Shown one piece after another: positions 6,549 to 61,713 of a DNA stretch of 64,000 bases (positions within the stretch are counted from its first letter, which is position 1; each line of letters begins with the position of its first letter). The stretch is from Hemerocallis citrina. Lineage: Eukaryota > Streptophyta > Magnoliopsida > Asparagales > Asphodelaceae. The stretch is from NCBI GenBank assembly GCA_017893485.1, contig CM030368.1, positions 176,138,504 through 176,202,503 on the forward strand. Reading direction: 5' to 3'. A program made the position numbers and the translations under genes. Under the pieces are notes generated by a model that was given only the letters and a program-made list of their open reading frames with translations, had not been told where the DNA came from and searched no databases.

Positions 6549-7145
6549 TGTTACCGCTGATTTCGGTGTGGGGGTAAACAGATAGAATTTGTGAGTCCGA
6601 AAAAAACCTGAACAGTTGACTCAGCCTTCTTGCTCCCGCCGCAACCTGCAAGGAAGTGCGAGACACCGGGGTTGATTCCGGCGACGCACCCTCCGACGCA
6701 CTTGTCAGTAATCAGAAAAAGATTAAGAAAGAGCTTAAGTGGTGAAGAAGTGATTAACCCGGTCGTGGTGGTAGAGGGGTTGTATTTATAGTCGCCTTTG
6801 GAACGGTTAGGATCCTGATTTCCTGCCTAACAGCCAGGAGGAAAATCCTCCTATTCTGTTTTGGGAAATTAGGCCCTAATTCCCTGGTGAGAGCCAATCA
6901 GGCTTATTGATTTGATTTAGTCAAATCAGTGGCCTTGATTCTCCTCATGGTGAACTGGGCTTGTATCGGGTCGGGACCCGTGCCCAGTTGAAGTGGATCT
7001 ATTCGCGGGTGGTCGGCTCTGTGAGAAGGAGGCCCAATACCCGTTTTGGATCCATCTGTATGTGAAATTACCTTTTTACCCCCGTGCTTCAAGATTCGTG
7101 CTCGATCTGGACGGTCCTGATTCAACCCTATTTTTAGCCATATCA
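6549..7145 (-). repeat. 3' LTR of the Tat element
   Basis: This 597-bp LTR has TG/CA ends. It differs from the other LTR at about seven positions (for example ttaccGctg versus ttaccActg at the start). A TATA box for minus-strand transcription, TATAAATA, lies at 6783-6790 on the complement, with its twin at 24931-24938 in the 5' LTR. Confidence 0.9.
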
Positions 7146-14440: not shown

Positions 14441-14469
14441 GAGTTCGGATTATGTGTTCCGGACTTTGG

Positions 14470-14909
14470 GTATAGTTCAATGGCTGTGGGAGCAGTTCCG
14501 AACGGCGATCTACCCCTGGTTCGTCCGGAGACGGGCCGAGAAGGTAAAGTCGAGCCGAGTGTTGGACTCCGAACCATCGGTATAGTTTAACGGCTGTGGG
14601 AGCAATTCCGAACGGCGATCTACCCCTGGTTCGTCCGGAGACGAGCCGAGAAGGTAAAGTCGAGCCGAGTGTTGGACTCCGAACCATCGGTATAGTTCAA
14701 TGGCTGTGGGAGCAATTCCGAACGGCGATCTACCCCTGGTTCGTCCGGAGACGAGCCGAGAAGGTAAAGTCGAGCCGAGTGTTGGACTCCGAACCATCGG
14801 TATAGTTCAACGGCTGTGGGAGCAGTTCAACACGGCGGTCTACCTCTGTTCCGTCCGGAGACGAACCGAGGGAATGAGGCCGAGCCGAACATGGACTCCG
14901 AACCATTGG
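14470..14909. repeat. 110-bp tandem repeat, four units
   Basis: Unit starts are at 14470, 14580, 14690 and 14800, each opening with gtatagtt(c/t)aa(t/c)ggctgtg, giving an exact 110-bp period. Units 1-3 are nearly identical and unit 4 is diverged. The array lies between the antisense genes and the end of integrase. Frames within it are shadows. Confidence 0.9.
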
Positions 14910-16105: not shown

Positions 16106-17323
16106 CTAAATCCTGAGTGCGCCCCTCCGATGCCTTCGTGGAGATCTCGCAGGGCATATTCGACTTGATCCGGAGAGAGGCATCTTAAGTACGGCCGGCC
16201 GCTCTATCTGAGAGAAAGAGCGTTTGTACAGGATACCCTCGATTAGGACAAACCGCTCGGCCCGGGCCCTGACTCGGCAAGCCTCTTTGGGATCCGAAGA
16301 CAGAACTCCATCCCTTAAGAATTCTATCAAAGGCTTCATCCAATCATCTTGTAGCATGACTGGCAAAGACTCCGCCGAGGCGGGCGACTCATCTTCGATG
16401 CTCGGCTTAGAGAGGACTTCGATCAGCACGGTCTGTTCGAGACCTTGAAGTGAGGAAGAAGCCAGTTTGGAGAGGGCATCAGCCTGTGAGTTTTCTTCCC
16501 GAGGGACTCGTTCGATAGTGGCCTCTTCGAACCGGCTCAGGAGGTCCCGGACCTTGGCGAGGTACCTCGCCATCCGCTCGTCTCGGGCCTCATATTCGCC
16601 TGAGACCTGGTTCACGGCTAGTTGGGAGTCACTGTGAATCCGGAGGCGCTGGGCTCCAGCACTTCGGGCGAGACCAAGCCCGGCGATGAGCGCTTCGTAC
16701 TCCGCCTCGTTGTTCGAGGCTTTGAAGTTCATGCGGATGGCGTACTGGAGGACGAAGTTGTCAGGGCCGTTCAGTATGACTCCGGCGCCGCTTCCTTCAT
16801 TACAAGAGGATCCGTCCACAAAAACGGTCCAAATGGGGGGCCCCTTCGGGACGTGGCCGACCTCGGGGATAGTGGATTCTACGATGAAGTCGGCGAGAGC
16901 TTGTGCCTTAATTGCCGTCCAAGGCTGATAAGAGATGTCGTGCTGACTTAGCTCAATGGACCACTTCATCAGCCGGCCCGAGGTCTCAGGCTTGTGGAGG
17001 ATCTGCTTGAGGGGTTGGTCGGTGAGGACAACGACCGAGTGGGATTGAAAGTACGGCCGAAGCTTTCTCGCTGCCATGACCAGAGCGTAGGCTATCTTCT
17101 CTATCCTCGGATCGCGGAGCTCGGCGTCCCGGAGCACCTTGCTCACGTAGTAGATAGGCCTCTGGGCCCGATCCTCCTCTCTCACTAAGACAGCACTTAA
17201 GGTCTGCTCGGAGGCAGCTAAGTAGACGAAGAGAGTCTCGCCCGGGACCGGTTTACTGAGCAGGGGGGGTTCACCAAATAGGCCTTCAGCTGGTCGAATG
17301 ATTCCTGTTGTGGTTGGCCCCAT
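16106..17323 (-). pseudogene. Tat dual RNase H segment of pol
   Basis: This 405-codon frame contains two RNase H modules. The first is the usual Ty3 type, following RT (ASEQTLSAVLVRE, then VVVLTDQPLK and SGRLMKWSIEL). The second is the archaeal/plant type (WTVFVDGSSCNEGSGAG, NNEAEYEALIAGL, HSDSQLAVNQV, NSQADALSKLA), with its D-E-D-D acidic residues visible. Both would degrade the RNA strand during reverse transcription. Having two is diagnostic for the Tat clade. It overlaps and is frameshifted from the RT frame near 17218-17323, at a run of G/C. Confidence 0.88.
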
Positions 17324-18832: not shown

Positions 18833-19439
18833 TGTAACACCCCGAATTCCAAATACAACTGAATTCGAGAGTTCTACAGGATCTTTTCACTTCTTTCGTA
18901 CAATTTTACAAGGAATTTAAAACTTTTATTTCAACAATAATTACATCAGAGTCTTTTACATCAATAAGCAGCGGAATTAATAAAATACAACCATAATGAA
19001 TGTACAATTGTTACAACTTTAACATTTAAGAAATCAACAGCATCATCAATCATCTTTATATCTTCATGTAACTCCATTTCCTGCATATAAAACTGTGGGC
19101 GCGTCAGTTGCTTACAACTGAAGAAATATTATACACGGCCATCCTCTCTATGCCGGAAACAGTATAACGATTCTCAAATGCTTTAGCAAACACAAACTTG
19201 ATCACAAACAAAGCTACAAAGGGACTATCCTGTTGATGTCGTGTTGTGCGGTGCACTTAGTCCTTGATGCAGTTGTTTATATTATATGACACTAATGCAC
19301 ACTTGTTCGGATTCTATGCATCCCATACTACATAGGTCCGAGGGCAAGCCTCTTAATCGTCTTCATTATTGTAGGGTTCAATCCCTCGCCATGACTTAAT
19401 CTACTACTGTAACTACGGTGAGTATCCTAGATGGTCTGT

Positions 19440-20010
19440 GAGTACAAGCACGTATCCTGGACCCTGGAGGGGAATTCCGCGCCATGTCTTGACTCATCAA
19501 GCATGCATTCTGCGGTAATTCAGCCTCCTCCCTGAACACGATCCTCTTGCAGTCACTAAAACATCCCACAAGCGTGACTAAAGTCCGATCATTACTGAGT
19601 TGTGCCCGCGCCATGTCTTGACTCATCAAGCATGCATTCTGCGGCTCACACACCCGCACCGTACCCTAGCTCTCATACTCATGTTTTTCTCTCACCTTCA
19701 TCACATCTCCACTATGTATCTATCTGTAATTTCAGCAAGTGTCATAGACGTTCCATGATTACAAGCACGTGTCCAAGACCCTGGAGGGGAACCTCGCGCC
19801 ACGTCTTGACTCATCAAGCATGCATTCTGCGATAGTTCAGTCTCCTCCCTGAACACGATCCTCTTGCAAGTCACCAAACATCCCACAAGCGTCGCCAAGA
19901 TCCCGATCATTCTGGAGTATATTGCCCACGCCATGTCTTGACTCATCAAGCATGCATTCTGTGGATCACATCCGCATCGTAGACCCTAGGCTCCCATACT
20001 TATGTTTTTC
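19440..20010. repeat. ~320-bp imperfect tandem duplication inside solo LTR B
   Basis: The block around 'accctggaggggaa...cgcgcca' at about 19458 recurs at about 19778. The word tcttgactcatcaagcatgc occurs four times (about 19487, 19617, 19804 and 19937). Homologous single-copy sequence is present in reverse in copy C (around 48540-48740). Confidence 0.75.
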
Positions 20011-20467
20011 TCTTACTTTCATTACAGCCTTACAATGTATTAATTATTAGAATCATGAATAAAAATCAAAGCTCTAGAGTTAGCCTCTCCACTCAACCGG
20101 GCTTATTCATTCATTACAATATATGACCAACCTTGGTCTTTCAAATTCTCATTTCATTTCATTTCATTGCCGGGGGAGATTTAGCTACTCCTTGATTTCA
20201 ATTTCCCATTCACAATTTCCAATTGAGCACTTCCAGCTCATAATTCATTTTAGAGTCTCACAGACTTTCTCATCATGATCTTAGCCTTTCATATTCATTT
20301 AATTCTCAATCCTCATCTATGATTCATCTCATGTAAATTCTCAATTCAATTATGATTCATTTCATATAAATTTATGCAGCAACAAATAGAGTTTACCAAT
20401 ATCCAGATTCACAATCTTTACCACAAACAATTCACAAGATTTCAGATATATCAAAAAGCACACTGGA

Positions 20468-20896
20468 CAGTCGACTGGGAACTCTTCCAGTCGACTTGTT
20501 CAGTCAATTCACATTCTTCATAACCACTCGGGAGAGTCGACTGCTGCACACGGCAGTCGGCTGTTCCGCAGTGTTCCAATTTAATTTCTTTGTCAATTTT
20601 ATTTTTCATAACCTCGTGTGCATTTCACAATAAAACTCAATCAAATCTTAATAATCATAAAATCTTGTATTCAAAACTTATTTAACTTTCATTTGTCAAA
20701 ATCAATTTCAAACTCAAGAATCATAAACAGTTCGGTTCAGTCGACTGGTGGCAGTATCAGTCGACTGTCCCGCAAATATCTTGAAAACTCAACATCAAAT
20801 TTATGGCAGCATCAGTCGACTGTAAAAAATAGTCAGTCGACTGTCCTACTGACAAGACCCAATTTTTAATACTTACCAGTCGAGAACAGTCGACTG
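20468..20896. repeat. Five pairs of the CAGTCGACTG palindrome
   Basis: Motif copies start at 20468/20488, 20534/20554, 20738/20758, 20813/20834 and 20877/20887. Four of the five pairs are spaced 20-21 bp start to start and the last 10. Several copies carry one or two changes (gagtcgactg, cagtcggctg, cagtcgactt). Spacer sequences are unrelated. The same paired motif fills the Athila element at 32056-42124, which is not otherwise related to this LTR. Confidence 0.9.
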
Positions 20897-22645
20897 TCAA
20901 AACAACAATTTGCATCTTTACATACAATTTTCGACTTTTGAATCGATTGTACTTCCATATACAAAATATAATTTATTTCCAGAATATATTCCTTTTAAAA
21001 CATTATCATATATATTATCAATTCCCAAGTTTCTCTTTTTCCAATCAAAAATGCATCAAAATATATTTTCCAAATGAACTACTTTCTTTTATCAAATTTT
21101 ACTTTACAAAAATCTCTATACTTGTATAAATAACATTTTGAGGTTATAAATCATACTTTTTTGCCACATTTCGCATTATTCCAATAATGTCTCAATATGC
21201 ATCAATTTCATACAATCACTTTAATTCTAGCAATTCAACTAGCAATCGTAACAAGCATAGCAATTTGCATTTACCATAATCAATCAAGATTTACCGATTC
21301 ATTTCTATAATAACTTGCATGCAATCAATTCAATTTCAACCAAATAAATCATATATCATCTATCATGCATTTCTACTCCTAAATTAGAAAGCATTTAAGA
21401 AACACCCACCTAAATTGAAGATTTGTTACCCAAATGAACTCCTAGAATTAGAAGCTCCTAAAGAAAGCTCCAATTGCAATCCTCCTCGAAATCCGTGCAC
21501 CAAAGCAAGCCTCCAAGCTCCACATTTCGGCAAGCATCCATCAATGAGCATCTCCATCTCCATTCGGCAATCATCAAGAACAACTCCCATCTTCTTTCAT
21601 ATACATATACTATGTGTGCACATATATATACATTAGTATATGTATATAGGCAAGTGGAATGGTTATAAAATGGAGGAATGGACAGAGCTTATGCTGTTTT
21701 GGGTTGTCTCGGATTGGCAAGAGAGAAGGGAGAAAAGAGATGAGAGAAAGAGAGGCTAAGAGTGCACTTTTATAAGAAAGCTAATGGGTAGTTAGTATAA
21801 CTACCTCCACATGAACACCACTAACCCATTATAAATTTTGGTAACTTACTTTCCCTCTTGTTTTCAAAATCAAAACTCCAGGTTTTCCCTCCTCTCTAAT
21901 CAGCCCGGTCCCCCAAAAATTGTGTGCACAACGCACGTGTGCACGTGCACGTGCTGTGTGTACAAAAAAAAATTTATTTATTTAATCCTTTAAAAATAAT
22001 TATCTATATATGTAATAAATATATAAAATTAACTTAAAAATTATACTTTTCATGAACAATAAAAATAGACACTCACATTTTCATGAAAATTATTTTGAAA
22101 GAATAATACGCTTAAAACACGTGCACCAAAACACGTGCGTCGCCCGTAAAATCTCAAAAATACAAAAATTGACTTTATGAATCGAAAAATATTTATAATT
22201 AATTGGAATACAATAGAAGGTATATTTAATATACATATTTGATAATATACTCAAACGTACAGAAAACACGTGTATTGCACGTAGAAATTTATTTTAACTA
22301 AAGATAGTCAAAAAATTGATTTTTCGTTTACAAAATAAATTAAAACATGTTTATAAAAATAAATGATTGAAATTCATTGAAAGCCTTGCACGTAACAGTG
22401 GAATACCCAAAATCGATACGTGCATTGATAATACGTAAAAAGCACGTAAAAACTCAAAGATTGAAATTTTGCATTTGAGTTGCCTTAAATGTGATTTTTT
22501 TAAGAATACAAGATTGTATAAATAATTGGAATTCAAAATAAATATCAAAATGCGTTATGGATATGATCAGTAATAGTACAAAATGCACGTGCGTAACACC
22601 CAAGGGCAAAATCGTCATTTAAATTTTGCGGGGTGTTACAGGGGG

Positions 22646-24696: not shown

Positions 24697-25293
24697 TGTT
24701 ACCACTGATTTCGGTGTGGGGGTAAACAGATAGAATTTGTGAGTCCAAGAAAAACCTGAACAGTTGACTCAGCCTTCTTGCTCCCGCCGCAACCTGCAAG
24801 GAAGTGCGAGACACCGGGGTTGATTCCGGCGACGCACCCTCCGACGCTCTTGTCAGTAATCAGAAAAAGATTAAGAAAGAGCTTAAGTGGTGAAGAAGTG
24901 ATTAACCCGGTCGTGGTGGTAGAGGGGTTGTATTTATAGTCGCCTTTGGAACGGTTAGGATCCTGATTTCCTGCCTAACAGCCAGGAGGAAAATCCTCCT
25001 ATTCTGTTTTGGGAAATTAGGCCCTAATTCCCTGGTGAGAGCCAATTAGGCTTATTGATTTGATTTAGTCAAATCAGTGGCCTTGATTCTCCTCATGGTG
25101 AACTGGGCTTGTATCGGGTCGGGACCCGTGCCCAGTTGAAGTGGATCTATTCGCGGGTGGTCGGCTCTGTGAGAAGGAGGCCCAATACCCGTTTTGGATC
25201 CATCTATATGTGAAATTACCTTTTTACCCCCGTGCTTCAAGATTCGTGCTCGATCTGGACGGTCCCGATTCAACCCTATTTTTAGCCATATCA
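24697..25293 (-). repeat. 5' LTR of the Tat element
   Basis: This is the 597-bp partner of 6549-7145. The minus-strand TATA box is at 24931-24938. It is followed on the outside by the acggg duplication and then by the right part of solo LTR A1. Confidence 0.9.
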
Positions 25294-30310: not shown

Positions 30311-32055
30311 GAATACTAGTTCCCTTCCAAGTACACGTTTCCATATTTTCCACTACTAGATCTTCCCTTAAGAAACCCTGGATTGGTTACTTTTATTATG
30401 GTCATCAAACAGGCATGAATATGTACAAAATAGTATCAAACTTAACATGGTATAATCAGTATTAAGTTCAGGAAAACAAATAAACATGCATAGATGATAT
30501 ACAGTCACATAAACGAGCAAAACAGTGTATATTCATATTCAAGACAGCATGACAATACAGTACTAAAACAGTGAATCTCGTCGCTACAGAAGTGCAAATC
30601 TGGATCCGTCAAAGAATCTGAAAAATAGACTCCCAACAAAATCCAGCGAATATAAATAAGTCACATAGTAATTCACAAAATCGTAACTCAAAACTGATTT
30701 GAATCTAGAAAACATGTTCAATCAGAAATCAGTAAAACGAATTTTCAGTCCGAAAAACAGCATCAAAACCTCTCAAATAAATCCAGAAAAAATCTGGGGT
30801 ATTTTCCTATATGTCTAGAATCAAAATATAAAGTTTCATAATATTCCAGTAAAATTAGTTTAGCCATCAAAAATAAGAAAACATCAAGAAACGATAGTTT
30901 GGCCAATCTGGAATTCCCAACACAGCTGTACGAAAACTGAAATATATCGCAAACCGTGAAACGAAATCCAAATCCACCAAAGGGAGATGAAAATAGAAAA
31001 AATATATTAACTTTCATATTTCACGAATATCTTTCATACAGTAAAAGGAATCAGGGTGAAAATACGATTCTTTACAGAACAGCGAGTAAAATACAGTAAG
31101 GATAGATTTCATAAACGAGCATGAAACAACACATAAAACTCATCAATAAAATTCACCAAAATTCTAGGTAATCCCTAACTAGATAAAGAAACACTGACCA
31201 AAGTTTTGGATCAAAATAATATATGTAGCATCAGTATCAAAATCATTTAGTCATCGAAATCATCGAAAAACAAAATCTGGAAAAGATCGACACTGCTGTA
31301 GTAAAACAGTCATAACTCAGTCATACGAAAATAAAATCAAGCAAGTTCGGAAGGGTTTGAAAATAGACAAAATTCTCTAAAACTCATGTTTTATACCAAA
31401 ATTAAGATACTGACTTTAAGACAGTTCAAAACAGCAAACAAAACAGATCAGTGACAAAATACAGATTTTTCCTTTTAACAACCACTCAACATATATCGCA
31501 CAAAACTTGATCAAAACACAACCAAACATGAAATCGAGTCCACCAAGTGTCCAAACGTCATGAATTAGGGTATCTAGCATGTTCACACCAAATATATCAC
31601 ACGGGTCTCAACAAAATCACGAATTCTCACAAATGTCCCACATACATGATCAAATCAAGAATGGGTAAAACCTAAGTTATTTTATGTCCATATTGTGTCG
31701 TGAGTCATCTATGGTCAAATTTTCACAATAGAGATAAAATTTATCAAGAAATAACACAAACAAGAGTCGTCTCTAGACCCAACTACACTATAGGTGGTAT
31801 TTTTGACTTGTATCAAACAAATGAATTGGAGTACAAGTTATTTGCATTAACCGGAGACGAAAACGACGAAAATTAAGAATAACAGGAACAGATTCCCGGG
31901 CAACGAACTCAACGATCACACGAGCCAAAAACGAGCAATACCCACGAACCACGAGCAACGAACTCAACTACGAACAGGAACACGAACGGAACCACGAATA
32001 CACCAATACCCGCAAGCATGAAAATACGTGCATAACCACACGCGTGCGACACGAG

Positions 32056-33733
32056 TGATGAACACATTATTATTCACTTTTTAGAGCAATAATCTTAATA
32101 TAATTAGACATTTAAAAGCTCTGTATATGGTATTTAACTCTTATTTTCTCTTTTCCATAGGAAACAGCTTATAACAGCAAAACGAAGCAGTTTCAGGACT
32201 TCAAGGATAATACACAAAGAACTGCAGAGGATAAGTCGACTGGTTCCCCAACACAGGCGACTGGACAAGAGAAGCTGATTTTCCACAACTCTCGACACAG
32301 TCGACTCACTCCCAAAAGACAGTCGACTGATTTGAACAAAGATGAAATCTACAGAAGTCTCGACTCAGTCGACTGGTCCAGACATAAGTCGACTGGTCTG
32401 CGGCGGAGTAAATAGATAAGATCTTCAAAGATACACCTGCATCTAATTTCAAATCTATTTTGAATCAAGATTTTATAAAGCGAATCAAATCTAAAGACAG
32501 GGTATTTTCCAAGTGGACGGGGTGAACAGATAAGGAAGGAAAGGAGAAAAGAGAAAGATATTAATCATCAAATCAAATAAAGAAGGATCTTCCTGAAAAA
32601 GTGAAAACCCTAATTCTCAGCCGTACTCTATAAATATCAGAATAGATCGACTTAGAGAGGGGATCCGGAATCATCAGATATATCTCTGGGAAGCGACTCA
32701 ATCACCAAGTTCCTGAACAACATCGAGAGCATCACTCCATCAACATCGAAGAGGGAGAGAGAAGATCCAGCAACCAGAAGGCAGTCGACTGTGTGACAGC
32801 CAGTCGACCATATTGCCGGAATTCATTAGTTTATTTCTTCTTCTCTCTTTATTCCTTTATGTTGATCATGTATTCAAACTTGTTAAGCAATAAAGTTATT
32901 ATTATGTGGAACTAATTTCATAGTTGGGTAGATCGAAACCGTAGTTATGTAATGCTATTTTCTTCTGAACTCTTCTATGTTACTTATTGATTGAATCTAA
33001 TTGAATTGGTATAGGTTTATGATAGTCAAACTAGTTCCCAAGACTGAGAGCAGTCGACTGAGGTGAGAGCCAGTCGACTGACGTACAGAACTTGGGAAGC
33101 TCAAGTTTGGATGTCATTTATCTGAATCTGTTATATGAGCATATTGAGACGACCGAATCTCGTGCTCATACTTTGTAACAAAGGAATCTTTAGGGGTTCT
33201 TGGTTCAATCAACTTAGAGGATCTAGATCTGATACCAATTTCTAGAACTTTAAGTGTTTGTTCGTTTACACTGTTCTTATGTTTTCTCTAAGTATAACTT
33301 AGTAGATACCATGCTAGATACTTAGGGGAAGAAACGAATTAGAGTAGATACCATGCCTAATTCTTGGCTTAGGGAAACATTACTTTAAGGAGTAGATACC
33401 ATGCCCTTGAAGTGAACAAACATGAGTAATTAGAAGTAAATTCAGAAGGCAACTTAGCATTACTAACTATTGGTAGAGATCAACAACCCAACTATTCAAG
33501 AGATATTTGTGATTCAACACCTCTCATCTTAGTTTTAATCTTTTAGTTCTTTTAGATCTTTACAACAACCCTTATTCATTCTTATTATTAGTTTTATTGA
33601 TTAGTAAGTTGAAGTCTACAATCTCTGTGGGATCGACCCTTGCTATTACTACGATTCGATTCGTGCACTTGCGAGGTTTTATAATTTGTGTCTAGTTAGT
33701 CTATTCATTTAGGTAGCTAGATTTCCAACAACA
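32056..33733 (+). repeat. 5' LTR of Athila
   Basis: 1678 bp with TG/CA ends. TATAAATA at 32629-32636 is the likely core promoter, placing transcription start near 32660. It contains ten copies of the CAGTCGACTG-type motif in five pairs (32233/32254, 32298/32320, 32366/32386, 32782/32801 and 33051/33071). Confidence 0.95.
32629..32636 (+). promoter_or_regulatory. Athila LTR TATA box
   Basis: TATAAATA in the context ccgtactctataaatatcag. The matching box in the 3' LTR is at 41020-41027, at the same offset of 573 bp. It lies after the first three motif pairs and before the last two. Confidence 0.7.
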
Positions 33734-33853: not shown

Positions 33854-36800
33854 ATGCACGGTAGACGATCACTTCGACCAGAGCTACTACCTATTGACGC
33901 AGAAACAGAACGAACTTTGCACAGACTAGGTAAGCTGTTTTCAGCCAACCAGTCGACTGCTGTACTGACCCAGTCGACTGCACAGAGACAGATTTCACAG
34001 GAAAGAATGGCTGAAGAAATACAAAATCGAGTACCAATGCAGGACAAATTCACTCCTAAGAATATTGAGCAACCTTCCTGCATTGCTTTTCAACCTAATG
34101 CTACAGGGAACATGCACCTATCTCCTCATTTACTTAGTATGGTTCCCCACTTTAGTGGCAAACCAGATGAAGAACCTCATCTTCACTTGCAAGACTTTTT
34201 CGATCTTTGCAGGACACAAAGCGTCCAAGGGCTTACCGCTGAACAAATCAGGTTAATCTTGTTTCCTTTTTCCTTAAAACTTAATGCTAAGTTGTGGTAT
34301 AATTCTTTGGAACCAGGATCAATTAATTCATGGGAGCAATTGGCAACAAAATTCTTGAAAGAATTCTTTCCAGCCCAGAAAACCAAACAGCTAAAAAGGG
34401 AGATTCAACTCTTCCAACAAAAGGATGGAGATTTATTCTTTGAGGCATGGAAGGACTTCAAGAGCAAGCTTCTCAAGTGTCCTACTCACAATCTGCCTAA
34501 GGATGATCAGGTACAAGCTTTTTATGAAGGTCTAAATGACACTAACAAAGCAATTGTTGATGCAACTTGCAATGGAATTTTGATGAGGAAAAGTGGAGAA
34601 GAAGCCATTGAACTTTTTGAAGAACTCAGCGAGAACTCCCAACAATTCTCAACAAGAAGGGGACCTACGAAAAAACAGGGAGTTTACGAGATCTCTAATA
34701 ATAATAACATTCAATTAGAAATGGCAAACATGAATAAGAAAATTGATATGCTTGTTAATGCAATGTCGACAATGGGTGGAGTTAAAAATCAAACAAATGA
34801 AATGTGTGCAATTTGTTCTCATTTAGATCACACAACTGATACATGTCCCATGTCTACTTTCACAGATCAGGAGCATGCGAATTATGTGGGTCGAGGAGTA
34901 TTTCCACCAAAGAACAATCCATACTCGAACACATATAACCCAGGATGGAGGAATCATCCAAACTTCTCATGGAGCAATAATCAAAATAATCAAGGGAATC
35001 AATTCACACAAGGACATACAAGAAACCCTCAGATGGGAAGTGGGTTTGATCGACCAGCCCCAGAACAGAAGAAGTTGGATTTTGAATCCACTGTTCTTCA
35101 ACTGCTCCAACAACAACATCAAACAAGCAACCAACAAGGGCAAGCAATTCAGAAGTTGGAAACCCAAATTGGTCAGATTGCAAAAGAGCTAAGCGAAAGA
35201 AAAGCAGGTGAACTCCCTTCACAAACCATACCAAACCCAGGAGGTCAAGAACAACTCCAAGCAGTGACTACTTTAAGAAATGGTAAGGTAATTGATAACA
35301 AGGTTGGAACACACACAGACAAGCCAGTCAGTAAACCAGTCGACTGTTTTTACAAACCAGTCGACTGCACAGACAAACCAGATACACAACCATCAAAAGC
35401 TTTGGGTTCAAGTAAGGTAAGTGAAAAAGTAGGGACAGTTCCACCACCATTCCCTCAAAGGTTAGTCAATAAAAAGAAAGAACAACATTTATTTGACGTC
35501 TTTGAAACTCTCAAAAAGGTAGAAATTAATATTCCCCTACTTGATGCTATTAAACAAATTCCTTCGTATGCCAAATTTTTGAAAGATTGTTGTACTCACA
35601 AAAGAACATTTCAGGTTAAGGAGGATGTGGCCTTGACAGAAGAAGTGAGCGCCGTATTATTAAGAAAACTACCACCTAAACTGAAAGATCCAGGTAGTTT
35701 CACCATTCCTTGCAAAGTTGGTGAGCACTTCTTTGAAAAGGCACTGCTAGACTTGGGGGCAAGCATCAACCTTCTTCCTTATTCTGTTTACGAAAAGCTT
35801 GGATTGGGGGAACTCAAGCCAACATCCATCACTTTGCAATTGGCTGATCGCAGCATAAAAAGACCTAGAGGTATTTTAGAAGATGTCCTAGTTCAGGTAA
35901 ATGATTTTATTTTGCCTGCTGATTTTGTTGTGTTAGATATGGAGGAATCTTCAATGTCATCATCTCTACCGATCATATTAGGTAGGCCCTTTATGAGTAC
36001 AGCTGATATAAAAATTTGTGTTAAAAAGGGCATTATAAGTATGAAGATAAACGGAGAAAAAGTGGAATTTAAAATGTTTGATACACTGAAATTACCACAA
36101 GATGATCATGAATGCTATAATATTGATGTGGTGCAGGAGATTGTTGATCAAACATTTCAGGTACATAGCGTTGAACCACTTCAAGCCACAATCACTCAAT
36201 CTCTAACTTTATCTCATGTTGAACAGGAATACGATGACTGGGAGATTGCAGAGACAGTACATCACCTTGAAACTCCACAGTCATATTCAGGTAAGCCTGC
36301 ACCTTTATTTGAAAAATTGGTGTCTGATAAAAATTGTTCTTCTACAGATCAGGCGACTGATGAACAGAGTAAGTCGACTGGTGCTCTAACCAGTCGACCA
36401 AACCCAGACACCCAGAACAAGTCGACTGCTGACATGGACCAGTCGACTGTACAGAAGCGTCCAGACATAGAACTCAAGCAGCTGCCCGATCATTTGAAAC
36501 ATGCATTTTTGGGCGAGAACCAGACATTGCCAGTAATAATTGCTGCGAACTTGAGTGCACAGGAAGAAGAAAAGCTGCTGAAGGTATTGCGAGAACACAA
36601 AAATGCAATAGGATGGACCATTGCAGACATCAAAGGAATAAGTCCATCCAAATGCATGCATAGAATACTCCTTGAGAACGATGCAAAACCTAGCAGAGAG
36701 GCACAACGAAGGCTCAACCCCAACATGAAGGAAGTGGTAAGAGCAGAAATTTTGAAGCTACTAGATGTTGGCATCATCTATCCTATCTCAGATAGCAAAT

Positions 36801-39427
36801 GGGTAAGTCCTATACATGTAGTACCTAAGAAAAGTGGAGTTACAGTGATAACAAATGAAGAGAATGAACTTATCCCAACAAGAGTAACCACAGGATGGAG
36901 GGTATGCATTGACTACAGAAAATTAAATAATGAAACCAGGAAAGATCACTTCCCTCTTCCTTTTATTGATCAAATGTTAGAAAGATTAGCAGGATATAGT
37001 CATTATTGTTTTCTAGATGGTTATAGTGGCTATAATCAAATTGCTATTGCTCCAGAAGATCAAGAAAAGACCACTTTTACATGCCCTGTTGGTACTTTTG
37101 CTTACAGGAGGATGCCTTTTGGATTGTGCAATGCTCCAGCTACATTTCAGAGATGCATGATGAGCATATTTTCAGATATGGTGGAAAGGTTTATTGAGGT
37201 ATTTATGGATGACTTTAGTGTTTTTGGATCTTGTTTTGATGAATGCCTTAACCATTTGCAGCTTGTTCTTAAAAGATGTGAAGAATGCAATTTAGTGCTG
37301 AATTGGGAAAAGTGCCATTTCATGGTACAACAAGGTATTGTGTTGGGACATGTTGTGTCAAAAAGAGGCATAGAGGTAGACAAGGCAAAAATTGATATAA
37401 TATCGAAACTACCCCCTCCCACTACAGTTAAGGGTGTTAGGAGTTTTCTAGGACATGCAGGGTTCTATAGAAGATTCATAAAAGATTTCTCAAAAATCTC
37501 CAAACCCCTTTGTGACTTGTTAGCTAAAGATGTTGAGTTTGTATGGACAGAAGAATGTACAAATGCTTTTAATACATTGAAAAATCTTCTCATTTCTGCA
37601 CCTATAGTCATGGCACCAGATTGGAGCCATCCTTTCGAGCTCATGTGTGATGCAAGTGATTATGCTTTAGGGGCTGTTTTAGGCCAAAGAATCAATAAGA
37701 AACCCCATGTTATTTACTATGCTTCTCGAACTCTAAACGATGCACAGCTAAATTATTCCACTACTGAAAAAGAAATGTTGGCTGTTATATTTGCTGTAGA
37801 GAAGTTTAGATCATATTTAATTGGTTCTAAAGTTATTGTTTTCACTGACCATGCGGCTTTGAGATATTTGTTGGCTAAAAAGGAAGCTAAGCCTAGGTTG
37901 ATCAGATGGGTGCTGATGCTTCAAGAATTTGATCTTGAGATTAGAGACAAGAAAGGATGCGACAATGTTGTGGCAGATCACATGTCCAGATTACTGCACG
38001 AGGAAGAGAGAAATGTGCCCCCGCTGAATGAAAATTTCCCAGATGAACAACTATTTGAAATAAATGTTCAAACTCTCGGGGCAGTCGACTGGTCCTTCCA
38101 CCAGTCGACTTGCCCCTCTGAACAGTTCCCCTGGTTTGCTGATATTGTCAATTTTCTAACTGCTCATGTTTTTCCTCCAGGTATGACACATCAGGAAAGG
38201 AAAAGATTGGTGGATCTGAGCAAACACTATTATTGGGATGATCCTTATTTATTCAAATTTTGCTCTGATCAAATTATAAGGAGATGTGTGGCAGACGAGG
38301 AACAAAGGAGTATTCTACAACATTGCCACCAATATGCATGTGGAGGACATTTTGGGCCAAAGAGAACAGCACTAAAGGTATTGCAATCTGGATTTTATTG
38401 GCCTAAGGTATTCAAAGATGCTTTTTCTTTTTGCAGGACTTGCGACAAATGCCAAAGGACAGGCAACATCTCTTCTAGAAATCAAATGCCACTGCACAAC
38501 ATACAAGTAATCGAGCTTTTCGATGTTTGGGGAATCGACTTCATGGGTCCATTTCCTAACTCATTTGGTTATTTATATATACTTGTTGGTGTGGATTATG
38601 TGTCTAAATGGGTCGAGGCTGTCCCCTCACGAACTAATGATCACAAAGTTGTTGTCAAGTTTTTGCAGGAGAACATTTTCACTAGGTTTGGTACACCCCG
38701 AGCAATAATAAGTGATGGAGGGAGCCACTTCAATAACTACCCATTTGCTTCTTTGTTGAAGAAATATGGGATTACACATAGAGTGGGAACTCCATATCAT
38801 CCTCAAACCAGTGGGCAGGTGGAGATTAGCAACAGAGAGATCAAGAGCATCTTGGAAAAGACGGTCAACACAAGGAGGAAGGATTGGTCGCTACGCTTGA
38901 ACGATGCATTATGGGCCTATAGAACCGCATACAAAATACCCATTGGCATGTCACCATACCGTTTGGTGTTTGGAAAAGCCTGTCACTTGCCAGTTGAGTT
39001 GGAGCACAAAGCATATTGGGCCATCAAAAGGTTCAATTTTGATATGAAACAAGCAGGTGACAAAAGGAGATTGCAACTAAATGAGCTTGAAGAGTTGAGG
39101 CACGACGCTTATGAAAATGCAAAATTGTACAAGGAAAGAACCAAGTTGTATCATGATAAACAATTAGGAAGGAAGGAGTTTTATGAAGGACAAAAGGTAT
39201 TGATCTACAACTCAAGATTAAGACTCTTTCCAGGCAAGCTTAAGTCAAGATGGTATGGGCCATACATTGTCACAAGAGTCTTTCCACATGGTGCATTGGA
39301 GGTTCATAGCGAAGAAAAAAATCAAACATTCAAGGTGAACGGGCATAGAGCGAAGCCATACATAGAGATGAGTCTAGAACCGCAAGAGGAAGATGTGAAT
39401 CTTCAAATCATTCAATACATAGCATGA
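33854..39427 (+). CDS. Athila gag-pol polyprotein, intact
   Basis: There are 1857 residues in one frame, with no stop or shift. The capsid-type gag domain spans about residues 75-250. A zinc knuckle, C-A-I-C-x4-H-x4-C, lies near 319-332 (second Cys spacing regular). The aspartic protease is near 632 with D-L-G-A-S in place of the usual D-S/T-G. RT spans about 960-1170 with F-M-D-D-F at 1117-1121. RNase H starts near 1255 ([13 protein letters not shown]). The integrase HHCC zinc region is near 1490-1535 and the DDE core has [15 protein letters not shown] and Q-V-E-I-S-N-R. Linkers at about residues 33-43, 495-505, 833-865 and 1410-1420 are made of CAGTCGACTG-containing DNA read in different frames. 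The start codon at 33854 is the first Met after the primer site. An intact frame plus near-identical LTRs suggests potential activity. Confidence 0.95.
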
Positions 39428-40446: not shown

Positions 40447-42124
40447 TGATGAACACATTATTATTCACTTTTTAGAGCAATAATCTTAATATAATTAGAC
40501 ATTTAAATGCTCTGTATATGGTATTTAACTCTTATTTTCTCTTTTCCATAGGAAACAGCTTATAACAGCAAAACGAAGCAGTTTCAGGACTTCAAGGATA
40601 ATACACAAAGAACTGCAGAGGATAAGTCGACTGGTTCCCCAACACAGGCGACTGGACAAGAGAAGCTGATTTTCCACAACTCTCGACACAGTCGACTCAC
40701 TCCCAAAAGACAGTCGACTGATTTGAACAAAGATGAAATCTACAGAAGTCTCGACTCAGTCGACTGGTCCAGACATAAGTCGACTGGTCTGCGGCGGAGT
40801 AAATAGATAAGATCTTCAAAGATACACCTGCATCTAATTTCAAATCTATTTTGAATCAAGATTTTATAAAGCGAATCAAATCTAAAGACAGGGTATTTTC
40901 CAAGTGGACGGGGTGAACAGATAAGGAAGGAAAGGAGAAAAGAGAAAGATATTAATCATCAAATCAAATAAAGAAGGATCTTCCTGAAAAAGTGAAAACC
41001 CTAATTCTCAGCCGTACTCTATAAATATCAGAATAGATCGACTTAGAGAGGGGATCCGGAATCATCAGATATATCTCTGGGAAGCGACTCAATCACCAAG
41101 TTCCTGAACAACATCGAGAGCATCACTCCATCAACATCGAAGAGGGAGAGAGAAGATCCAGCAACCAGAAGGCAGTCGACTGTGTGACAGCCAGTCGACC
41201 ATATTGCCGGAATTCATTAGTTTATTTCTTCTTCTCTCTTTATTCCTTTATGTTGATCATGTATTCAAACTTGTTAAGCAATAAAGTTATTATTATGTGG
41301 AACTAATTTCATAGTTGGGTAGATCGAAACTGTAGTTATGTAATGCTATTTTCTTCTGAACTCTTCTATGTTACTTATTGATTGAATCTAATTGAATTGG
41401 TATAGGTTTATGATAGTCAAACTAGTTCCCAAGACTGAGAGCAGTCGACTGAGGTGAGAGCCAGTCGACTGACGTACAGAACTTGGGAAGCTCAAGTTTG
41501 GATGTCATTTATCTGAATCTGTTATATGAGCATATTGAGACGACCGAATCTCGTGCTCATACTTTGTAACAAAGGAATCTTTAGGGGTTCTTGGTTCAAT
41601 CAACTTAGAGGATCTAGATCTGATACCAATTTCTAGAACTTTAAGTGTTTGTTCGTTTACACTGTTCTTATGTTTTCTCTAAGTATAACTTAGTAGATAC
41701 CATGCTAGATACTTAGGGGAAGAAACGAATTAGAGTAGATACCATACCTAATTCTTGGCTTAGGGAAACATTACTTTAAGGAGTAGATACCATGCCCTTG
41801 AAGTGAACAAACATGAGTAATTAGAAGTAAATTCAGAAGGTAACTTAGCATTACTAACTATTGGTAGAGATCAACAACCCAACTATTCAAGAGATATTTG
41901 TGATTCAACACCTCTCATCTTAGTTTTAATCTTTTAGTTCTTTTAGATCTTTACAACAACCCTTATTCATTCTTATTATTAGTTTTATTGATTAGTAAGT
42001 TGAAGTCTACAATCTCTGTGGGATCGACCCTTGCTATTACTACGATTCGATTCGTGCACTTGCGAGGTTTTATAATTTGTGTCTAGTTAGTCTATTCATT
42101 TAGGTAGCTAGATTTCCAACAACA
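40447..42124 (+). repeat. 3' LTR of Athila
   Basis: 1678 bp, matching 32056-33733 except for about four substitutions. I noted differences at acatttaaAagc/acatttaaTgc, cgaaaCcgt/cgaaaCtgt, accatGcc/accatAcc and gaaggCaa/gaaggTaa. It carries the same ten palindrome copies. Confidence 0.95.
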
Positions 42125-43119: not shown

Positions 43120-45012
43120 AATTAGAGGGGGAACTAGTGATTGGCACAAATTTTATGATTATGTTCCCGACGAAGAAAATCAGGGTATAGGTATAAAAAT
43201 TTGTAAAACTTGTTTGAAAGCATACAAATGGAAGAAGGGTGAGGGGACGGATACAATAAAATGACACATCCAAAATGTACACAAGGAACTTCTTGTAGAC
43301 TTACCCGGCCAACAAAAAATTCACCCTAGGACCGATCTAGTTGATAGCCACCCTTATGATCCCGAACTTATTCATTGGGAAATGGCCCGACTAGTAATTA
43401 AGAGTTACCATTTTCCTATTTCGAGAGTAGTGACTTAGAAGCTTTTAATCAAACCGCATTAAACCCGCATTTTAAAAGAATCCCTATGAATACTTTGAAG
43501 TCTGACTGTTTTAAAATGTACAATGAAATGAGAGAAGCTTTGATTGCCATTTTATGGAGTATAATTTGTAGAGTTTCTTTAGCTTTGGTTGCAACAATAT
43601 TCCAATGATGGGAATAACTTGTCATTGGATCGACAGCGATTGGATTATTCAAAAAAGGATAATATCAGTTGCCGCGTTGCTCTATCCCCATAGTGGTAAT
43701 GAAATTGAAAATCGTATCTTAGAAATTTGTGATGTTTTTTATATTCGTAATAAAATTATGTGTATAAGTTTTGATAATGCATCTAATAACAATGCATCAA
43801 TTAGTATATTAAAAACCGCATTAAACCCTCCATCTGATAATATTTTTCATGTTAGATGTGCATGTCATATTTTAAATTTATGTGTTCAAGATGCATTAAA
43901 AATAGTCAAACTATATATAGTTAACATTAGAAATTGTGTACATTTTATTGCATTAAGTGGCCCAATATTTCAAGAATGGAAAGTTTGGTGTAGGCTTAAA
44001 AATGTACATTTTAGAAAATTTTCAAAGGATGTAAACACCGATGGAACTCTACTTTTGATTTGCTACATGTTGTTACTGGATATAAAGCATGTATAAATAA
44101 TTTTTTATGGCAAAAAATATGCCAAATTTTGAAATGACTTCCCAAGCTTGGTTTTATGTCGAATCTTTGTTAAATTTTATAGAATCTTTTAAAACCGCAA
44201 CTTTCAAATTTTCAAAATCTTATGAATCTACTTCTAGTAGCATTTTTATTTCAATAGTTACTATGTTGCAAATTTTCAAAGAAATGATCGATGATGCTTT
44301 TATTGGTCATATTGTGAAACCTTCATACACTAAATTTTTTAAGTATTTTAACCCTCCTCCTATGTTGTATTGTATTACTACTGTAATGGATCCTCGGATC
44401 AAATTAGAAGGTACGAAGAGTTTGATTGAAATATTTTTTAATTTACATGGGGAAGATGATTCTGAAATTGATTTGGAAACATTTTTAGCTAAATTTGAAG
44501 CGACATTAAATAACTTGTATGATTTTTATGATAGAAGTTTTTCATCTAGTAGTACTACTACTTTAGTTAGTTCTTCTTCTGCTACTTCTAGAGGTAAGGG
44601 AAGAATAAATTAGATGATTCCACATTTAATTTACTTGCACAACTTCAATCAAAAAAACATAGCTATAATCAACCAAATGAATTACATTGGTATAATTAAC
44701 AAGATTCTGAAAGTTTTACTTCTACACTTGATATTTTACAATGGTGGAAAGACCATGAACATACTCATAGTATTCCTAAAATATATGGCTAAAGATCTAC
44801 TAGCTCCTTCTGTCTCTACAGTTGCTTCAAAAAATGCATTTTTTACAAGTGGCAGGGTTCTAACCGATTACAGAAATTGCTTGAAGCCCCAATCGTTGGA
44901 GATGCTCGTCTGCACGGAAGACTGGATGAAGGTCGAAGATAGGATTCAAGGAAAAGGGTTCGACACGTCTACAAGTGGAAGTAACTCGCCGGAAGAACAA
45001 CAACAACAATAG
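43120..45012 (+). pseudogene. hAT transposase, main part
   Basis: A BED-type zinc finger is visible near 43200-43290 (C-K-T-C-L-K-A-Y ... H-x4-H), interrupted by a stop where a Lys/His would lie. The central RNase-H-like region (43605-44610) continues in several frames, with ISFDNASNN, HVRCACHILNL and TTVMDPRIKLEG motifs. The hAT C-terminal dimerisation domain (44770-44960) reads LAPSVSTVASKNAFFTSGRVL, with the typical S-x(3)-E-R-x-F-S-x-x-G core degraded. It ends at 45012. The protein would bind the element ends and catalyse cut-and-paste. At least five stops or shifts disable it. Confidence 0.85.
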
Positions 45013-49339: not shown

Positions 49340-51990
49340 AATATTAGAAGCAACGTTCCAGGATTCAATGGCTTAAAGAGGGGGATGCAAATTCAAAGTT
49401 CTTCCACAAAGTCGCAAACGGAAGGAGGCATAACCGCATTACTGGACTTGAGGTGGGAACTAGGTAGACCGAGGATGAGGGGAAGATCAGAAGGCATCTA
49501 GAAGACAAATTCAAAGAACTGTTGGGTCAAACAGATAGGCATAGATTAGGCTAGACGGTACTAGAATAGACGGAAGCGAGGGGATAGAAGGACCGTTTTT
49601 AGAGGAAGAAGTGTTTCAAGCAATCAAAAACCTAGGACAAGACAAAGCTCCGGGACCTGACGGATTCCCTAACTTGTTCTATAGGCTATACTGGAAAATC
49701 ATCAAAAGGGACCTAATGGAAATCTTCCAAGAATTTCACTATGTGGCAGTGGACATCGACAGGCGGAACTATGCAAACGTCATTCTCATTCCAAAAAAGA
49801 CTGAGGCTAGGAGGAGTGAAGACTTCAGACCGATTAGCCTCCTCAACACAACCTTTAAGATTATCACCAAAGTATTGGCCTCAAGATTAGCACCTCACCT
49901 AAATAATGTAATAAGTGAATCATAGAGTGGGTTCATTAAAGGGAGGGACATTATGGACAGCGTCGCCTCTGCTCACGAGATTGTTTATAGAGGAAACAAA
50001 TAGAACGTTGATGGATTCCTGCTGAAACTGGACTTTGAAAAGACCTACGACTCGGTGAAGTGGGGTTGCGTGGATGACGTCCTGCAACTGAAAGGGTTTG
50101 GAGACAGATGGAGATCTTGGATTATGAAATGTGTAAGGGGTGGAAAATCGTTCGTACAATTAAACAGCAAATCAGGGAAGGAAATTAGATGTCAGAAAGG
50201 ATTATGCCATGGTGACCCCTTGTCTTCTTTAATTTTCACACTAGTTGTTGATGGTATAACAGAAATGATCAGGAAGGGTAGAGAGGAAAGAATTATCATG
50301 GGAGTTCAGACAAAAGGGATTCCGGAAGCCATACGAATTTTGCAATATGCGGACGACACGATAATCCACGGGGAGGCAAGAGGGGAGGAGATCTTGGCAA
50401 TTAACATAGTATTGAGGTGTATCTAAGCGTGGGCAGGCCTGAAAGTGAATTTCACAAAGAGCTGTGTTGCACCCCTCAGCGGTAATCTATCCACTTTGAT
50501 AAATACTATCAAGACTATGTTGGGATGCAAGATGGTTAACTACCCAATTACATATCTTGGCGCACCCATTAGATCGGGAACACTACGGAAAGAGGACTGG
50601 CAACCGTTAATAGAGAAAGTGGAAAGGAAACTGGCAGGATGAAAGGTACATTTTCTTACACTCGGAGGGAGGATCACTTTGCTCAATTCGGTTCATAGTA
50701 GTCTACTGATGTATTTAATGTCAATTTATGAGCTCCCGAAGTGGGTTATCAGCAGGATCGACAAATGTAGGAAAAGGTTTCTCTGGAAGAGAGCAGACAG
50801 AACAAACAAGGGATTCCATTTGGTTAAATAGGGAAGGGTGTGCAAAAGGAAAGAATTTGGGGGGCTAGGAATCCTAGACCTGAGGGATATGAATCGGGCT
50901 CTGATGAGCAAGTGGTGGTGGAAGATGAACAGGAGAAGAAATAGCTAGTGGTGCAAATCGTTTGGAACCTACCAGAGAAGAAAAAAAATAAGATTTGGAG
51001 GAAGAAGTTTGTATGGAAGGTCATCCTATCTGTGGAAAGGAGTGGTGAGAGTAGGGGATATTTTCCACACAAATACCACATGTAGAATTGGGAACGGAAA
51101 AAATACACACTTTTGGAAGGATAAATGGTGTGGTAACAATACTCTGCTAAGTATGTTCCCGGAAGCAGCAAAGAGTATGGTAACTACAGACTCGCTAGTC
51201 ACGGATGTTTGGTGAAATGGCAGGCTGAAGCTACAAATAGGAGAGGATGTGTCACAGGAGTGTACCAAACAAATACACAGCCTGAATAGATTCATTCGAA
51301 CCGAAGGAAGGAATACCAAAGGCCCAGAAGACGTCATGACATGGTGCTTAGAGTCTAATGAAAACTTCTCGGTAGCATCCCTTTACAACAGATTGAACGA
51401 TGGAGGAATCAGAAGTAGAAACAGTAAGATTATATGGAGTACACAAGCGCCTTTGAAGGTAAAAACATTCCTATGGCTGGTAGCGAACGATACTATTTTA
51501 ACAAGGGGGAATCAGAAGTAGAAACAGTAAGATTATATGGAGTACACAAGCGCCTTTGAAGGTAAAAACATTCCTATGGCTGGTAGCGAACGATACTATT
51601 TTAACAAGGGTAAACTTACTGAAGCGAGGTATGCATCTTGATGTCGAGTGTTCTAGATGCAACAATGGCGATGAAGACTCTAATCACATCTTTTTCAAAT
51701 ATAATAAGGCAAAACTAACTTGGGAGGTTGTCAGTCGTGGATTTGGGTGTCTACAAAGTCCCTCCTCAATCTCCGAGGCTTGGGACATAGGGAGGGGGGG
51801 TAGCATAAGAAAAGAGGATAGGGAAGCCTGGGATCTGTCAATGGCTGCGGCAATCTGAGGCTTGTGGCTAGATCGAAATAACTTTTGTTTTCGTAATTGC
51901 AATCATAGATTTTCTATCTTTATGCATCAAATTTACGGTTTCATTTATGCCTGGGCAGGTCAGGCGGGTAACAGAAAGAAGCTACGCATG
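49340..51990 (+). pseudogene. LINE ORF2, reverse transcriptase and C-terminal zinc region
   Basis: This continues the endonuclease at 27457-28485. The landmarks, in order, are WLKEGDANSKFFH (49370), APGPDGFPNLFY (49645), ILIPKK and FRPISLLN (49785-49850), LLKLDFEKTYDSVKW (50020), GDPLSS (50213), the catalytic Y-A-D-D-T (about 50347), GLKVNFTKS, YLGAPIRSG, LGILDLRDMNRALMSKWWW (50870), and a zinc-binding RT C-terminal region with C-S-R-C-x(7)-H (51650-51690). It copies LINE RNA at the nicked target. Stops occur near 49423, 49923, 50002, 50426, 50641, 50829, 50943 and 51213. A 103-bp duplication at 51405-51610 shifts the frame. Confidence 0.88.
51405..51610 (+). repeat. 103-bp tandem duplication in LINE ORF2
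   Basis: 51405-51507 and 51508-51610 are essentially identical, starting ggaatcagaagtagaaac and ending ttttaacaaggg. 103 is not a multiple of three, so the duplication frameshifts the RT C-terminus. Confidence 0.95.

Positions 51991-53161: not shown

Positions 53162-61713
<8,552 letters not shown>

What the first reader, a model, noticed from the sequence alone, without database searches (positions are those of the whole stretch)
32233..33080. The same palindrome pairs in the LTR of an unrelated Athila element
The Athila LTR carries ten copies in five pairs (pitch 21, 22, 20, 19 and 20 bp), with spacers unlike each other and unlike those in the solo LTR at 20468-20896. The second LTR has the identical set. 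A shared dyad-plus-pitch pattern between elements with no other similarity suggests either a small sequence unit that spreads on its own, or convergent acquisition of a dimeric protein-binding site. The pairs lie both upstream and downstream of the TATA box at 32629.
Basis: partly seen in the sequence, partly recalled or inferred. Interest (0 to 1): 0.88.

Follow-up and report, generated by a model that had tools for sequence, protein, structure and literature searches.

The report
Paired DNA palindromes shared by retrotransposons
A ten-letter DNA palindrome, found here almost always as a pair about two helix turns apart, occurs as such exact pairs at 75,067 places in this plant genome, inside unrelated retrotransposon-type elements and even within one element's protein gene, and is likely a docking site for a DNA-binding protein that these elements share.

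Summary
Sites 3 and 4 (33 and 18 residues longer than close relatives), probably site 2, are insertions; a copy in the same genome lacks the site-4 unit. The exact pair occurs 75,067 times genome-wide (reversed-pattern control 0). The 33 pair-bearing loci examined form 8 sequence groups. Between related copies the palindromes are the best-kept bases (95.6%; spacers 77.9%; rest 91.5%) and keep their CpG in 96 of 97 comparisons against 223 of 306 elsewhere. Reading frames differ and changes are not compensated, so neither protein coding nor a hairpin explains this; DNA-level constraint does. Best reading: an insertable, dyad-symmetric docking module for a dimeric or tetrameric DNA-binding protein, shared by unrelated LTR elements; protein and effect unknown. 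Closest known kind: palindromic repeated motifs in Sirevirus LTRs; helical pairing, sharing across families and presence within ORFs appear new.

The parts
32056..33733 (+). 5' LTR of the Athila-type element (TSD ACGAG at 32051-32055); holds five unit pairs
32233..32263 (.). LTR pair 1 (AAGTCGACTG - 11 - CAGGCGACTG)
32298..32329 (.). LTR pair 2 (pitch 22)
32366..32395 (.). LTR pair 3 (pitch 20)
32629..32635 (+). TATA box (TATAAAT); pairs 1-3 lie upstream, pairs 4-5 downstream
32782..32810 (.). LTR pair 4 (pitch 19)
33051..33080 (.). LTR pair 5 (pitch 20), inside a longer inverted repeat CTTGGGAA...
33854..39427 (+). intact 1857-residue gag-pol frame (gag, protease, RT, RNase H, integrase)
33950..33980 (.). 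ORF site 1: pair near the gag N-terminus
35337..35367 (.). ORF site 2: pair in the gag-protease linker; window linker 18 residues longer than P0007, 20 longer than P0001
36350..36449 (.). ORF site 3: five palindromes in the protease-RT linker; linker 33 residues (99 bp) longer than in P0125
38082..38111 (.). ORF site 4: pair in the RNase H-integrase linker; 18-residue (54-bp) insert, empty in L036
40447..42124 (+). 3' LTR with the same five pairs (40624 to 41471)
18833..22640 (.). unrelated ~3.8-kb solo-LTR-like insertion (TGTAACACCCCG...CGGGGTGTTACA, GGGGG on both sides) inside a different LTR element
20468..20896 (.). four pairs (20468, 20534, 20738, 20813) and one lone palindrome (20887) in that insertion

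Best explanation
The feature is a dyad-symmetric DNA module of about 46-54 bp (two CAGTCGACTG palindromes 19-22 bp apart with partly conserved outer CCGA arms) that is likely the docking site of a dimeric or tetrameric DNA-binding protein and that unrelated LTR retrotransposons of this plant have likely each gained by insertion. Shown: the palindromes, their pitch, their abundance, an insertion with an empty site in the same genome, their presence in several sequence groups without detectable similarity, and DNA-level conservation of the cores against faster-changing spacers. Inferred: that a protein reads them. The four partly conserved points (outer CCGA, core TCGA, core TCGA, outer CCGA) lie roughly 10, 20-21 and 10 bp apart, so all would face one side of the helix; tolerated changes mirror each other (C1 to A, G10 to T), as for a homodimer. 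Inferred and untested: units enter new elements when reverse transcriptase switches template between co-packaged RNAs, then multiply locally by tandem duplication, and elements that keep intact cores leave more copies because the bound protein raises LTR transcription or keeps silencing off.
For: Abundance: 75,067 exact pairs (spacer 5-15) in 3.78 Gb, reversed-pattern control 0. Pitch: 84 of 145 successive distances under 300 bp in the 24 loci L013-L036 are 19-22 bp; mean of the window's 15 pairs 20.5 bp = 1.95 turns. Constraint: in 49 pair comparisons over 13 related loci, core 923/965 identical, spacer 387/497, rest 21,842/23,868; core CpG kept 96/97, other CpG 223/306; core above rest in 13 of 13 loci. 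With every exact pair left out to reduce ascertainment (33 pairs): core 612/649, spacer 272/336, core CpG 64/65, 9 of 9 loci. Not protein-level: the 11 ORF palindromes are read in three frames. Gain: L036 lacks site 4 while L043, L046 and L053 have it with another spacer; of the 120 listed pol relatives 95 could be measured and have a 38-48-residue linker against 59 here. Shared module: outer flanks match TCCnGA at 2.28 of 5 positions against 1.23 +- 0.06 shuffled, over 134 pairs. Different carriers: 33 pair-bearing loci in 8 groups; L013 and L014 hold integrase 28-30% like Athila's beside their pairs.
Against: No protein, binding, methylation or small-RNA datum was available. Units inside coding sequence are unusual for promoter sites. 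Conservation could in part reflect repeated copying of cores by gene conversion. Most loci compared were picked because they hold exact pairs; one control for this was run, and the copies are related, not independent. A profile of the Athila units recognises the solo-LTR units only weakly (p = 0.027; 2 of 4 score positive). The outer arms are not seen in groups 4, 5 and 6, and that pooled test is dominated by the Athila group (70 of 134 pairs). Spacers and flanks change faster than the rest (spacers in 12 of 13 loci, L015 the exception), which a plain binding site would not need. The group count may be too high (parts of one family) or too low (the Athila group is joined through L036, which holds two arrays). 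Template switching has no direct evidence.
Confidence: 0.55

Rival explanations
1. A self-spreading micro-element: the ~50-bp inverted repeat is itself mobile (a minimal MITE or palindromic element) and is carried by whatever it lands in; conservation of the arms reflects what the moving enzyme needs.
For: Insertion with an empty site; the oriented profile places units in both orientations; same unit in several sequence groups; dyad arms conserved, middle free.
Against: No target-site duplication seen at site 4; direct repeats around 13 units no longer than between mismatched flanks (mean 5.38 against 5.46). Cores stay conserved between copies after insertion, which a passenger would not need. 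No candidate enzyme.
Confidence: 0.2
2. A nucleic-acid hairpin is the functional form: in RNA or single-stranded DNA the two palindromes pair into a stem that feeds small-RNA production, or serves RNA dimerisation and packaging.
For: Seven of seven folded units give the expected stem, z from -1.7 to -6.6. A held paper reports, citing work not held here, an excess of small RNAs at palindrome clusters in maize Sirevirus LTRs (PMC10760457 passages). Outer stem partners show 3 complementary double changes against 1.1 expected.
Against: Most changes are one-sided: outer partners 26 single against 5 double, inner partners 49 against 7, no double change at the other eight positions, in 133 distinct pairs. 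Inner complementary doubles are 6 against 4.8 expected, within-palindrome 4 against 5.3, so no clear compensation.
Confidence: 0.1
3. Neutral tandem-repeat drift: a 20-21-bp repeat born by chance duplicates and persists in LTRs without function.
For: Local duplication is visible: a doubled pair in L016, four palindromes at 21 bp in L033, a 21-bp repeat at 35333-35381.
Against: Spacers are unalike (128 distinct in 133 pairs) while cores stay at 94-96% and keep CpG; same core in different groups.
Confidence: 0.1
4. Convergent point mutation of pre-existing sequence into binding sites in each family.
For: Spacers differ between families.
Against: Sites 3 and 4 are insertions, not substitutions; outer arms are shared beyond the palindrome in several groups.
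Confidence: 0.03

Closest known systems
Sirevirus LTR repeated motifs (RM), Bousios et al. 2010, PMC2829016 (passages and section 9 read)
   Same: Short palindromic dyads, at least 8 copies per element, clustered in the upper half of the LTR, highly alike within most elements, carrier families otherwise diverged; the Vitis RM CGGTCGACCG shares the GTCGAC core; function unproven.
   Different: Those are Ty1/copia Sireviruses, nearly all with a CGG-CCG core, and were reported absent from the classic Ty1/copia set; here Ty3/gypsy Athila plus unrelated elements, another core, pairs two turns apart, outer arms, and units inside gag-pol.
VANC target motifs of VANDAL transposons, PMC5735166 (passages) and PMC10398659 (abstract and outline)
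   Same: Short sequence motif accumulating in transposable elements with rapid gain and loss and tandem repeats; there shown to be bound by a TE-coded anti-silencing protein.
   Different: VANDAL transposons, motif YAGTATTAY, mainly non-coding, family-specific; here LTR elements of several groups, and no other ORF of 80 aa or more lies between pol and the 3' LTR of this element.
ONSEN heat-responsive LTR, PMC3907296 (passages)
   Same: A plant LTR element carrying a host-factor site that drives its transcription (functional analogy).
   Different: One copia family, known factor HSFA2, different site; no inserts in ORFs mentioned in the passages seen.
Rickettsia palindromic elements, in the review PMC10969869 (passages)
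   Same: Palindromic inserts accepted in frame inside unrelated ORFs.
   Different: Bacterial, about 150 bp, with a conserved peptide; here 54-99 bp inserts read in different frames in a plant retroelement.
Short interrupted repeat cassettes of A. thaliana (SIRC), PMC10342631 (passages)
   Same: Short direct repeats with diverse spacers, common in mobile elements.
   Different: Many different repeat sequences, about 57% without palindromes; here one palindrome and a fixed pitch.

Membership tests
Sirevirus-type palindromic repeated motif (RM) | palindromic dyad, at least 8 near-identical copies per element | tested here: met
   10 in the 5' LTR and 11 in the ORF of one element
Sirevirus-type palindromic repeated motif (RM) | CGG-CCG core signature (in 12 of the 13 published motifs) | tested here: not met
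   core is CAGTCGACTG
Sirevirus-type palindromic repeated motif (RM) | carrier is a Ty1/copia Sirevirus | tested here: not met
   domain order PR-RT-RNaseH-IN with Retrotrans_gag, i.e. Ty3/gypsy order
Sirevirus-type palindromic repeated motif (RM) | cluster upstream of TATA forming a CpG island | tested here: inconclusive
   3 of 5 LTR pairs upstream; CpG o/e 0.85 at 32200-32420 against 0.54-0.70 in the other LTR stretches, GC only 0.46
Target motif of a VANC-type anti-silencing protein | bound by a TE-coded protein that removes methylation | not testable with these tools
   no binding or methylation data
Target motif of a VANC-type anti-silencing protein | located mainly in non-coding DNA | tested here: not met
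   11 of the 21 palindromes of one LTR plus the interior lie in the gag-pol ORF
MITE or other mobile inverted-repeat element | inverted terminal repeats | tested here: inconclusive
   dyad arms with partly shared outer bases, but exact unit ends are not defined
MITE or other mobile inverted-repeat element | target-site duplication | tested here: not met
   none seen at site 4; direct repeats no longer than off-diagonal
Athila-type LTR retrotransposon (the carrier) | gypsy gag-pol, long LTRs, 5-bp TSD | tested here: met
Athila-type LTR retrotransposon (the carrier) | place in the Athila branch of an RT tree | not tested

The most novel reading that the evidence does not exclude
A shared regulatory currency among retrotransposons: one DNA-binding protein (host- or TE-coded) recognises a paired-dyad module of four helical turns, and unrelated LTR families have each acquired that module, even inside their polyprotein genes, through template switching, so that a sub-element of about 54 bp behaves as a parasite of parasites or as a common licence to be transcribed or to escape silencing. 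Sister dyads (CGGTCGACCG at 12-bp pitch) would be parallel codes for other proteins.
Probability: 0.25. Interest if true: 0.88.

Novelty: new variant of a known kind. Interest (0 to 1): 0.74.

Why it matters
If right, unrelated retrotransposon families in one genome are tied to a single recognition system, and the site can be gained as a ready-made insert even in coding DNA. That gives a testable route to the open question of how cis-regulatory sites in LTRs arise and spread, and whether elements share or steal control signals. The 75,067 exact pairs are a lower bound (87 of 133 distinct pairs in the sample are inexact), so this would also be a genome-wide landing platform for one factor, able to rewire nearby host genes.

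Tried and rejected
Hairpin as the selected form: seven folds were stable but changes are mostly one-sided and not clearly compensated. Extended inverted repeats around 14 units: mean score above permuted flanks only at p = 0.022, driven by a few units, above all 33051. Target-site duplication: none; the 9-bp repeat CACAGACAA beside site 2 lies in a local 21-bp repeat. Unoriented spacers: pairwise identity 29% against 25% expected; oriented flanks and spacers of 14 window pairs carry information above shuffles (11.9 against 7.5 +- 0.6, 0 of 300). Protein-level explanation: frames differ. Viral contigs: exact pair 0 hits; relaxed pair 3 hits, of which only L001 was looked at, a tandem repeat; no relative of the RT piece. 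Prokaryote contigs: 9 hits; by eye L004, L006 and L010 look like terminator hairpins with T runs and L005 and L012 are tandem arrays; taken as unrelated. Rfam 0, tRNA 0. Peptide signatures of pairs in the 240 listed gag and pol relatives: none except QSTQQIFQST in two Orobanche proteins, whose DNA was not seen. Literature: the decamer occurs in 29 papers; the 20 listed titles have no bearing on plant repeats, and none was opened. The listed titles and abstract starts of searches (lists capped at 10-15) show no paper on this pair. The 2016 Sirevirus palindrome paper is not held, so it is known here only through PMC10760457. PMC7218506 (palindromic repeats in fungal mitochondria, passages) was judged too distant.

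Full report
Observation. The element has LTRs 32056-33733 and 40447-42124, 4 differences in 1,678 bp, a 5-bp target duplication ACGAG and an intact 1857-residue frame with gag, protease, RT, RNase H and integrase domains in gypsy order. The window holds 22 exact CAGTCGACTG against 0.03 expected. With one LTR counted, 30 palindromes lie in the Athila-type element (21) and in the solo-LTR-like insertion 18833-22640 (9); among their 29 successive distances 15 are 19-22 bp, against 0.6 expected.

Host. A MYB3R-type gene in the window (58980-60932, minus) has its best named relatives in Asparagus (48%) and Iris (46%), then Asparagus again and palms; the very best hit (52%) is unnamed. The genome has 3.78 Gb in 701 contigs.

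Insertions. Of the 120 listed pol relatives, 95 could be measured over the RNase H-integrase linker: 38-48 residues against 59 in the window. The closely related P0125 reads VQ-LPW where the window has VQ, 18 extra residues, FPW: a 54-bp insert holding the pair. In the protease-RT linker P0125 and P0007 lack 33 residues (99 bp), where five palindromes span 100 bp. At the gag-protease linker the window has 33 residues between shared anchors against 15 in P0007 (again 54 bp) and 13 in P0001, counted by eye; this linker varies among relatives. Site 1 lies in a linker too variable to judge. In the same genome, L036 (84.6% identical over 1,543 aligned columns) lacks the site-4 unit, while L043, L046 and L053 have it with another spacer. 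L028, about 80% identical over the 3' end of the interior, has no unit in its LTR; L016 has an extra pair that duplicates its neighbour.

Abundance and spread. The exact pair (spacer 5-15 allowed) occurs 75,067 times in the genome, the reversed pattern 0 times; the listed rows, which are only the first places on one contig, have a spacer of 10 or 11 except three with 15. In the 24 loci L013-L036, 84 of 145 successive distances under 300 bp are 19-22 bp; only 5 others are 27 bp or less, three of them the 12-bp pitch of a sister motif. Pairs themselves recur in arrays, for example every 76-77 bp in L024 and 67-72 bp in L013. After masking the cores, the 33 pair-bearing loci (the window's two included) fall into 8 groups without similarity near the units. 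Different parts of one family may be counted apart, and the Athila group is joined through L036, which holds two arrays. L013 and L014 contain integrase only 28-30% like Athila's within about 1 kb of their pairs; L024 contains RT 30-43% like Athila's, but some 7.6 kb from its pairs. So at least a few carrier lineages are different. Of the 16 stretches placed without regard to the motif (160 kb), 3 hold pairs (L024, L027, L030).

Constraint. Comparing the window element with 13 related loci over 49 pairs, cores are 95.6% identical (923/965), spacers 77.9% (387/497) and the rest 91.5% (21,842/23,868); the 20-bp flanks in a parallel count are 77.8% (1,343/1,727). Core CpG is kept in 96 of 97 comparisons, other CpG in 223 of 306; cores exceed the rest in 13 of 13 loci. 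Because most loci were fetched for holding an exact pair, I repeated the count without any exact pair: 33 pairs, core 94.3% (612/649), spacer 81.0% (272/336), core CpG 64/65, 9 of 9 loci. The copies are related, so these are not independent trials. The ORF palindromes stand in all three frames, so the protein is not what is conserved. In the window, 30 of 30 palindromes keep the CpG and no further copy with up to 2 mismatches lies within 120 bp of one, although the ORF has a CpG observed/expected ratio of 0.34.

Shape of the site. In 133 distinct pairs (46 with both palindromes exact) with 128 distinct spacers, positions 3, 5, 6 and 8 are nearly invariant; the common changes are C1 to A (32 of 266) and G10 to T (42 of 266), mirror images of each other. 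They occur mostly singly (85 single, 7 double against 9.1 expected; 4 complementary against 5.3 expected), as expected for a homodimer site. Across the two palindromes, stem partners show 3 complementary doubles against 1.1 expected (outer) and 6 against 4.8 (inner), so a hairpin gets at most slight support. CpG was lost in 7 of 266. Outward flanks share TNCCGA-like bases: 2.28 of 5 matches against 1.23 +- 0.06 in shuffles over 134 pairs, seen in 5 of 8 groups and not in groups 4, 5 and 6; 70 of the 134 pairs are of the Athila group. That places partly conserved CCGA, TCGA, TCGA, CCGA about 10, 20-21 and 10 bp apart. For the window alone, oriented flanks and spacers carry information above shuffled controls; the cross-test from Athila to the solo-LTR units is weak (p = 0.027, 2 of 4 positive).

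Mechanism. I take the module to be a binding site for a dimeric or tetrameric protein reading one face of about four helical turns. What the protein does is inferred from the place of the sites around the LTR promoter and from analogies: ONSEN (host factor site in an LTR), VANC (TE-coded anti-silencing factor) and Sirevirus repeated motifs (unproven). No binding, methylation or RNA data were at hand. The carrier has no other frame of 80 aa or more between pol and the 3' LTR, so the protein would act in trans, from the host or another element. Spread by template switching and local tandem duplication is a proposal; tandem duplication is visible in L016 and L033, template switching is not.

Known or new. 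Palindromic repeated motifs in plant LTRs are known from Sireviruses, one of them (Vitis, CGGTCGACCG) with the same GTCGAC core. New here, as far as the searches show, are the pairing at two helical turns with outer arms, the sharing among unrelated elements of one genome, and the in-frame inserts in gag-pol. The listed titles and abstract starts of searches show no paper on this pair; the library lacks most subscription journals. Hence a new variant of a known kind; it would become more than that only if one shared protein or independent mobility were shown.

Noticed in passing
L021 1552-1723 and 9701-9864; L025 6351-6407: A sister dyad, CGGTCGACCG / CAGTCGACCG and one-sided variants, partly repeated at a 12-bp pitch in loci without the 20-bp pairs; CGGTCGACCG equals the Vitis Sirevirus motif reported in PMC2829016.
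   Followed up: partly
window 6549-6848 and 24697-24996: 99% identical direct repeats 18.1 kb apart, apparently parts of the LTRs of a gypsy element (RNase H at 16106-17323, GC about 56%) that the 3.8-kb solo-LTR-like insertion interrupts.
   Followed up: partly
window 14469-14870: 3.7 copies of a 110-bp tandem repeat inside that element (94% matches).
   Followed up: no
window 51405-51610: Two perfect copies of a 103-bp unit head to tail.
   Followed up: no
window 44101-44613: hAT-like transposase fragment (PF14372).
   Followed up: no
window 33020-33110: LTR pair 5 sits at the centre of a 24-27-bp imperfect inverted repeat (CTTGGGAA...), as if inserted in the loop of an older hairpin.
   Followed up: partly
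L009, L011, L012 (Myxococcales MAG): The same decamer at a 21-bp pitch (a pair, a pair, four copies) in three contigs of one bacterial MAG; three other prokaryote hits look like terminators. Taken as coincidence.
   Followed up: partly
window 58980-60932 (minus): Large exon of a host MYB3R-type transcription factor gene, used to place the plant near Asparagales.
   Followed up: yes
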